Source of the DNA: Natrinema versiforme
GTDB lineage: Archaea > Halobacteriota > Halobacteria > Halobacteriales > Natrialbaceae
DNA length: 64,000 nucleotides
Direction of reading: 5' to 3'
NCBI RefSeq assembly: GCF_005576615.1
Contig: NZ_CP040330.1
Location: forward strand, 1,798,001 to 1,862,000
The stretch's first letter is position 1. The number at the start of each line of letters is the position of its first letter. The position numbers and the translations under genes were made by a program. Under the pieces are notes generated by a model. That model did no database searches, was not told the DNA's origin, and saw only the letters and a list, made by a program, of their open reading frames with translations. Below, one piece after another: positions 27,372 through 33,368 of this stretch.

Positions 27372-27456
27372 GCCGAGATAGCCTAGCCCGGCCAAGGCGG
27401 TAGATTCGAAATCTACTGTCCTCACGGACTCGGGAGTTCAAATCTCCCTCTCGGCG
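27372..27456 (+). tRNA. tRNA-Ser (CGA)
   Basis: An 85-nt class II tRNA. The acceptor arms GCCGAGA/TCTCGGC pair, the anticodon stem GTAGA/TCTAC carries the loop TTCGAAA with anticodon CGA (reads UCG, Ser). There is a long variable arm (TGTCC...GGACT), and the T arm is GGGAGTTCAAATCTCCC. Discriminator is G, and CCA is not encoded. Its last 21 nt recur twice just downstream (see the repeat entry). Confidence 0.96.
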
Positions 27457-27769
27457 CTTTTCCGACGAACAAAACCGACGAGCGCAGCGAGTCGTCCGTT
27501 CGTCGGAAAACGGCAGGGAGTTTGAATCAGGGAGTGGAGCGAAGCGAAACGACCGTGGTTCAAATCTCCCTCTCGGCGCTTTTCCAGCAACAAACCGATG
27601 AGCGCCGCACAGCGGCGCGAATCAATCCTCGTTGCTGGAAAACGATGCGGGAATTTGAACGAGAGAAGACGAGCGCAGCGAGAGCGCGGTCGCTATGCGA
27701 CCGCGATTGCGAGCGGCGAAGCCGCGAGCGAGCACGTCTCGGCGTAGTTCAAATCTCCCTCTCGGCGCT
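27436..27769 (+). repeat. Three copies of the tRNA-Ser 3' end separated by hairpin modules
   Basis: The tRNA 3' end GTTCAAATCTCCCTCTCGG plus CGCT occurs at 27436-27458, 27558-27580 and 27747-27769. After copies 1 and 2 an inverted repeat follows: TTTTCCGACGAAC (27458-27470) pairs with 27498-27510, and TTTTCCAGCAAC (27580-27591) pairs with 27631-27642. Each is followed by a degenerate complement of the T arm (27516-27526 and 27649-27660). Further perfect hairpins lie at 27602-27618, 27685-27705 and 27713-27725. The stems differ between units but remain paired. No integrase is nearby. Confidence 0.9.
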
Positions 27770-33278: not shown

Positions 33279-33368
33279 TTAGTTTCGTCGGAGAATTTCG
33301 CATCCAGCCGGGTCGCCCCGACTTCCTCTATCCTCGTCGTCCGGCGTTGAGATGGAATCTCGTGCCAT
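33279..33368 (-). CDS. Possible 29-aa upstream ORF in the leuA leader
   Basis: ATG at 33368 to TAA at 33279, encoding MARDSISTPDDEDRG and 14 more residues. It ends 16 nt before the GTG start of the synthase and lies downstream of a TTTAAG-like promoter element near 33398. It may be a leader peptide or chance, since nothing in the peptide suggests branched-chain amino-acid codon control. Confidence 0.2.
   Translation of the reverse strand: MARDSISTPDDEDRGSRGDPAGCEILRRN

What the first reader, a model, noticed from the sequence alone, without database searches (positions are those of the whole stretch)
27436..27769. tRNA-Ser 3' end present three times, each with a hairpin whose sequence changes but pairing is kept
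Copies of the last 23 nt recur at 27558 and 27747. Each of the first two copies is followed by an inverted repeat (CCGACGAAC/GTTCGTCGG, then CCAGCAAC/GTTGCTGG) and a degenerate complement of the T arm, so the tRNA end can pair with downstream sequence. Attachment-site duplication would not make the paired changes. No integrase is present.
Basis: seen in the sequence. Interest (0 to 1): 0.75.

Follow-up and report, generated by a model that had tools for sequence, protein, structure and literature searches.

The report
Hairpin cassettes behind haloarchaeal tRNA genes
Behind many transfer-RNA genes of salt-loving archaea sit rows of tiny (about 120 base) gene-less DNA units, each ending in a copy of that tRNA's own tail and built to fold into hairpins; they look like an undescribed class of minute mobile cassettes that slot into the tRNA gene.

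Summary
The window is a Natrinema-like haloarchaeon. Behind tRNA-Ser(CGA) lie two units (122 and 189 bp), each ending in a copy of tRNA positions G53-N73. The same architecture follows about 21 of 49 chromosomal tRNA genes in this genome, each unit carrying its own tRNA's end. It occurs in 45 of 59 sampled Halobacteriales genomes and in no genome sampled elsewhere in the phylum. Each unit is: tRNA 3' end, hairpin A, a complement of that tRNA's own T loop and T stem, hairpin B, next tRNA 3' end. Pairing covaries strongly. Loops are DNA-type d(GCGNAGC), almost only on the tRNA-sense strand; RNA-type tetraloops are depleted. The copied block is sharp, older copies are more diverged, and one orthologous pair (tRNA-His) shows a clean gain of a 123-bp unit between tRNA and old unit. 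Best explanation: tiny non-autonomous cassettes inserted in the tRNA T loop by a tyrosine recombinase acting in trans, probably on a folded single strand, as integron cassettes or CTXphi are. Insertion in the T loop is well supported; the enzyme and the folded-strand step are inferred.

The parts
27372..27457 (+). tRNA-Ser(CGA) gene; insertion site is its T loop (TTCAAAT, 27437-27443)
   Evidence: ARAGORN and Rfam RF00005
27436..27456 (+). block G53-N73 of the functional tRNA, the part that is copied
   Evidence: identity profile over 139 loci: 1.00 at G53, falls to 0.5 just past N73; sequence
27436..27557 (+). Unit 1 (122 bp)
   Evidence: spacing between copies
27458..27510 (+). Hairpin A of unit 1: TTTTCCGACGAAC / GTTCGTCGGAAAA, with inner CGACGAGCGCAGCGAGTCG holding d(GCGCAGC)
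27516..27526 (+). Complement of the T stem and T loop (GGGAGTTTGAA)
27516..27570 (+). Hairpin B of unit 1, type II (CAGGGAG...CGACCGTGG), outer stem closed by the next tRNA copy
   Evidence: covariance-model hit R1 E=1.6e-8; fold
27558..27578 (+). First downstream copy of G53-N73
27558..27746 (+). Unit 2 (189 bp)
27580..27642 (+). Hairpin A of unit 2: TTTTCCAGCAAC / GTTGCTGGAAAA
27649..27759 (+). Hairpin B of unit 2, type I (GAGAGAAGACG...CACGTCTCGGCGTAG), outer stem closed by the second copy
   Evidence: covariance-model hit R1 E=2.4e-9; only hit of GTCTCGGCGTNGTTC in the window
27747..27767 (+). Second downstream copy of G53-N73, end of the array

Best explanation
These are tiny, gene-less, non-autonomous cassettes that insert site-specifically into the T loop of tRNA genes. 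Each carries a replacement tRNA tail (T54-N73), so insertion leaves the tRNA intact and pushes the old tail downstream as a copy. Repeated insertion at the tRNA end builds a directional array. The recombination site is the T arm; in the cassette it is an inverted pair (complement of T loop and T stem ... T loop and T stem) that folds into hairpin B on the tRNA-sense strand and mimics the double-stranded T arm. A tyrosine recombinase supplied in trans (haloarchaeal genomes encode many) would join the folded single strand to the tRNA gene, as integron integrases do with attC and XerC does with CTXphi. SHOWN: architecture, tRNA-specific copy and complement, covariation, strand bias, DNA-type loops, order-wide range, decay with distance, one clean filled/empty pair. 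INFERRED: the recombinase, the single-stranded substrate, the origin of new units.
For: Copied block has sharp edges: identity with the tRNA 0.17-0.69 just upstream, 1.00 at G53, 0.86 at N73, 0.50 after. In 49 arrays of 2+ units the farthest copy is more diverged than the nearest in 25 and less in 5. Filled/empty site: this genome has tRNA-His + unit B; Natrinema versiforme has tRNA-His + new 123-bp unit + unit B, with the same downstream flank, and the displaced tail has mutated. A-B-A arrays with 99-100% identical A units. Similar hairpins occur behind different tRNAs with the tRNA-specific parts changed. Complement covers T loop and T stem only, not the acceptor strand (1.95 of 7 against 1.83 +/- 0.07). 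Hairpin B covariation: 26/28 paired against 13.3 +/- 2.2, and 25/28 against 13.9 +/- 2.1. GCGNAGC in 114 of 179 units against 20 in shuffles, 146 on the tRNA-sense strand against 9 on the other; GNRA and UNCG loops depleted; 12-16 times denser than background. A 58-kb element with a tyrosine recombinase beside it is inserted in the T loop of tRNA-Pro(CGG), identity from G57 to N73, and separates that tRNA from its unit array. 18 tyrosine-recombinase matches in this genome.
Against: No recombinase is linked to units here, and no free form was found: no credible hit in IMG/VR with a long exact signature, none in phages, and on plasmids only behind plasmid-borne tRNA genes. Tandem duplicates (108 x 3, 131 x 2) could come from unequal crossing-over. 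It is not explained how a unit that reaches a new tRNA type acquires both its tail and its complement. The hairpin A strand bias disappears with DNA energy parameters (p=0.11). The conventional T-loop element at tRNA-Pro shows no obvious hairpin complement at its left arm (read by eye). Only one pair (His) is a clean filled/empty case with matching flanks.
Confidence: 0.6

Rival explanations
1. RNA element: the tRNA trailer is transcribed and the T-arm complement competes with T-arm folding, while the downstream copy sequesters the complement; the array tunes tRNA maturation or makes small RNAs.
For: Same strand as the tRNA, starts right behind its 3' end, covariation and tRNA-sense-strand folding bias.
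Against: Loops are DNA-stable GCGNAGC and not GNRA/UNCG. Copies decay with distance. More than half of the tRNAs in the same genome lack units. Copy number and order vary among close relatives. It does not explain how copies arise.
Confidence: 0.13
2. Scars of ordinary integrated elements: attachment-site duplications left when larger integrase-bearing elements were deleted.
For: tRNA 3'-end copies are the classic mark of tyrosine-integrase insertion; integrase-bearing elements sit at the same T-loop position.
Against: Units are uniform in size (10th-90th percentile 102-155 bp), share two conserved hairpins and a tRNA-matched complement in dozens of genera, and a unit appears as a clean gain.
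Confidence: 0.1
3. Transposition by another enzyme: an IS200/IS605-type (HUH) or casposase-type non-autonomous element, with G53-N73 as a long target duplication.
For: Hairpins near both ends and single-strand signals resemble IS200/IS605 ends and the PATEs described in Haloquadratum (PMC3119063).
Against: IS200/IS605 elements and PATEs cause no target duplication (PMC3119063). A 21-bp duplication always ending exactly at N73 of any tRNA is unusual. The unit holds a tRNA-matched complement.
Confidence: 0.09
4. Host feature: a native hairpin tail behind tRNA genes (e.g. a DNA structure that stalls replication or marks termination), multiplied only by unequal crossing-over.
For: Found in nearly all good-quality Halobacteriales genomes sampled; identical tandem units exist.
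Against: Patchy among tRNAs within a genome and among relatives; heterogeneous neighbours in one array; the His gain is of a unit unlike the resident one.
Confidence: 0.08

Closest known systems
Integron gene-cassette arrays / CALINs (attC x attI, IntI)
   Same: Directional arrays at a fixed head site; a recombination site in each unit that folds as a single-strand hairpin with unpaired bases; one strand used; arrays without a neighbouring integrase.
   Different: Head site is a tRNA T loop, no gene cargo, the site is tRNA-specific, no IntI linked. Archaeal integrons reported so far are in 75 MAGs from nine phyla, with no mention of Halobacteria in the main text (PMC9668308).
CTXphi-type integration by XerCD at dif (from general knowledge)
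   Same: Two inverted core sites fold on one strand to make the recombination site; tandem satellites at the site.
   Different: A phage with genes at dif; here gene-less units at many tRNA genes.
Archaeal tRNA-targeting integrative elements (SNJ2-, SSV-, pNOB8-type; review PMC8371274)
   Same: Insertion restores the tRNA and leaves a 3' fragment at the far end.
   Different: Those encode an integrase and are kilobases long; the SNJ2 site is about 13 bp at the tRNA 3' end, not T54-N73.
MITEs, PATEs and small mobile repeats of Haloquadratum (PMC3119063)
   Same: Short, gene-less, hairpin-bearing, haloarchaeal.
   Different: Not described at tRNA T loops, no tRNA copies; PATEs make no duplication.

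Membership tests
Integron cassette array (CALIN) | Directional array of units each with a folding recombination site | tested here: inconclusive
   Directional array and conserved folding are met; that the fold is a recombination site is inferred
Integron cassette array (CALIN) | attC consensus (R/L boxes) and IntI in the system | not tested
   No attC model was run; the units' conserved parts are T-arm sequence and AGTCGC...ACGTCT or CAGGGAG...CGACCGTGG. IntI was not searched for specifically.
Integron cassette array (CALIN) | Gene cargo in cassettes | tested here: not met
tRNA-targeting tyrosine-integrase element | tRNA 3' end restored and duplicated with a sharp boundary | tested here: met
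tRNA-targeting tyrosine-integrase element | Encodes its own integrase | tested here: not met
   Units are too short for a gene; none beside the window array
tRNA-targeting tyrosine-integrase element | Excision and integration catalysed by a tyrosine recombinase | not testable with these tools
   Needs an assay
MITE / PATE | Dispersed through the genome with transposon-like ends | tested here: not met
   Signature hits are restricted to tRNA genes
Known structured RNA (Rfam) | Match to a family | tested here: not met
   Only tRNA matches credibly

The most novel reading that the evidence does not exclude
An order-wide archaeal cassette system, separate from integrons, in which ordinary tRNA genes serve as the insertion heads and gene-less folded single-stranded DNA units are inserted and reshuffled by a host or viral tyrosine recombinase in trans.
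Probability: 0.38. Interest if true: 0.92.

Novelty: new variant of a known kind. Interest (0 to 1): 0.8.

Why it matters
Nearly every good-quality haloarchaeal genome sampled carries these units behind tRNA genes, and ten searches of the open literature library found no description. If they are mobile, they are among the smallest site-specific integrating elements known. They would show a second, independent use of folded single-stranded DNA as a recombination site, with the tRNA T arm as the master sequence, and would explain part of the long-standing link between tRNA genes and integrases. They are testable in tractable laboratory strains of Haloferax or Natrinema.

Tried and rejected
A short pattern in IMG/VR (GTCTCGGCGTNGTTC) gave only chance hits, too unspecific; the 18-mer gave one chance hit in a coding gene of an unrelated phage contig. 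Phage blastn: chance hits. Signature hits 2.3-2.5 kb apart looked like cargo-bearing units but are paralogous tRNA genes, each with its own unit. An orphan unit at C2:3040252 looked tRNA-free but is the displaced tRNA-Pro(CGG) array behind a 58-kb element. The integrase of that element found no relatives in IMG/VR; its relatives in other genomes often sit at tRNA-Ala(GGC) without the hairpin complement, and one at a tRNA-Pro end beside unit-like sequence. RNAalifold on all hairpin B types found only the outer stem, so covariation was counted on type I with fixed spacing. A covariance model of hairpin A was not built.

Full report
Observation. tRNA-Ser(CGA) lies at 27372-27457. Its 3' end, from G53 (27436), recurs at 27558 and 27747. 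After the tRNA and after the first copy come an exact hairpin (A), then GGGAGTTTGAA or GGGAATTTGAAC, the complement of the T stem and T loop, then a second hairpin (B) whose outer stem uses the next tRNA copy. The units are 122 and 189 bp. The neighbours are PEP carboxylase and a 4Fe-4S protein, the same as in Natrinema thermotolerans, and no integrase lies beside the array.

It is genome-wide. The window is part of G000:C2. Of 49 chromosomal tRNA genes found by Rfam, about 21 have one to three downstream copies of their own 3' end, usually 80-160 bp apart. A covariance model of hairpin B plus the flanking T-loop pair finds about 33 places in the genome at E below 0.01, all but two of which I matched directly to a tRNA gene. 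One of these two is a second tRNA-His. The other, at C2:3040252, is an array of tRNA-Pro(CGG) units cut off from its tRNA by a 58-kb element.

It is order-wide. With the model, 45 of 59 Halobacteriales genomes have units at E<=1e-7, and 39 of 44 of the good-quality ones. None of the genomes of the same phylum outside the order had one (17 of 120 positive, all within the order). The exact 18-mer ACGACCGTGGTTCAAATC, the end of type II hairpin B, is in 100 of 392 genomes and 43 of 95 genera; the same letters read backwards are in none. Of 127 signature hits examined, 115 lie within 330 bp behind a tRNA on the same strand. Three more are in the same arrays, and the rest are at contig ends, behind undetected tRNAs, or chance hits in genes.

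Anatomy. From 207 tRNA loci I extracted 203 units behind 31 tRNA types; the sample is enriched for units because many loci were fetched by signature. Median unit length is 122 bp. The copied block is sharp: identity with the tRNA is 1.00 at G53, stays above 0.85 to N73 and falls to 0.5 directly after, and is 0.17-0.69 just before G53 (139 loci). The 7-nt T-loop complement is present (at most one mismatch) in 180 of 200 distinct units, against 9.4 in shuffles. The five bases beside it match the T stem of the unit's own tRNA 12 standard deviations above shuffled tRNA identities; the acceptor strand is not complemented. So the inverted copy covers the T loop and the 3' side of the T stem, about the size of a tyrosine-recombinase core site (general knowledge). 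Hairpin A, in its common short form, is an 8-bp stem of free sequence with a conserved interior CGARCAA...CGYGAG, compatible with tandem G.A pairs. Hairpin B has several types. In type I, two variable pairs are kept in 26/28 and 25/28 distinct sequences against 13.3 and 13.9 expected. Over all types, a base three nucleotides before G53 is unpaired in 92% of predicted folds.

Strand and material. Predicted folds are more stable on the tRNA-sense strand: hairpin B 161 against 18 with RNA parameters and 153 against 28 with DNA parameters. The seven-base motif GCGNAGC, known from work on DNA (Hirao 1994 and Yoshizawa 1997, cited in PMC6479982) as an extraordinarily stable DNA mini-hairpin, is in 114 of 179 units against 20 in shuffles, with all four bases at N. 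It is 146 times on the sense strand and 9 times on the other, and 12-16 times denser than in background sequence. Loops that RNA favours are depleted: GNRA 49 against 80 expected, UNCG 9 against 24. I read this as selection for folding as single-stranded DNA. It is indirect, and the hairpin A bias is not significant with DNA parameters.

Dynamics. In arrays of two or more units the distal copy is more diverged than the proximal in 25 of 30 informative cases, as expected if new units enter at the tRNA. At tRNA-His this genome has one unit; Natrinema versiforme has a different 123-bp unit between the tRNA and a recognisable relative of that unit (88% identical), the downstream flanks match, and the displaced tRNA tail has mutated. 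Other loci show offsets compatible with head gains (Met, Asp), A-B-A arrays with 99-100% identical A units (L246, L249) and tandem identical units. At the Ser(CGA) locus itself, relatives carry none to two recognisable units of changing kind and order. Similar hairpins occur behind different tRNAs with different tails and complements.

Link to recombinases. Units are too short for genes and no cargo was found. The genome has 18 tyrosine-recombinase matches. One, 337 aa with Phage_integrase and SAM-like domains, sits beside the far end of the 58-kb element in tRNA-Pro(CGG). The identity block there runs from G57 in the T loop to N73, and the old unit array lies beyond it. A relative 67% identical, in a different family of the order, also lies beside a tRNA-Pro 3' end next to unit-like sequence. 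So an integrase-bearing element uses the same place as the units. Whether such an enzyme moves units is not shown.

Interpretation. The best-supported reading is site-specific insertion of gene-less cassettes into the T loop of tRNA genes, by a tyrosine recombinase in trans, with a site that functions as a folded strand. This works like an integron array or CTXphi. It is not filed as an integron: there is no cargo, and the attC and IntI features were not tested. It is not a MITE or PATE: units are tied to tRNA genes. It matches no Rfam family. Ten literature searches in an open-access library found no description of it; subscription papers were not covered, so novelty is provisional.

Noticed in passing
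G000:C2:3040397-3098648 (outside the window; L424, L425): 58-kb integrated element in tRNA-Pro(CGG), tyrosine recombinase gene at C2:3040579-3041592, identity block G57-N73, unit array displaced beyond it.
   Followed up: partly
G000:C2:2401596-2410101 (L076): 8.4-kb integrated element in tRNA-Ser(TGA) with an almost full-length tRNA duplicate and integrase matches near its far end.
   Followed up: partly
G000:C2:1679104-1682400 (L069): About 3.2-kb segment behind tRNA-Val(CAC) with an integrase match; identity block begins 5' of the T stem, unlike the units, and is followed by a hairpin-A-like sequence.
   Followed up: partly
G000:C3:23121-25911 (L088): Dense cluster of about a dozen divergent tRNA genes on a 492-kb replicon, like a viral tRNA array.
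   Followed up: no
window 33290-33342, minus strand: leuA-Halobacteria cis-regulatory RNA upstream of a 2-isopropylmalate synthase-like ORF.
   Followed up: no
L247, L250, L257: Tandem arrays of (nearly) identical units (108 bp x 3, 91+55 alternating, 131 bp x 2), useful for copy-number polymorphism tests.
   Followed up: partly
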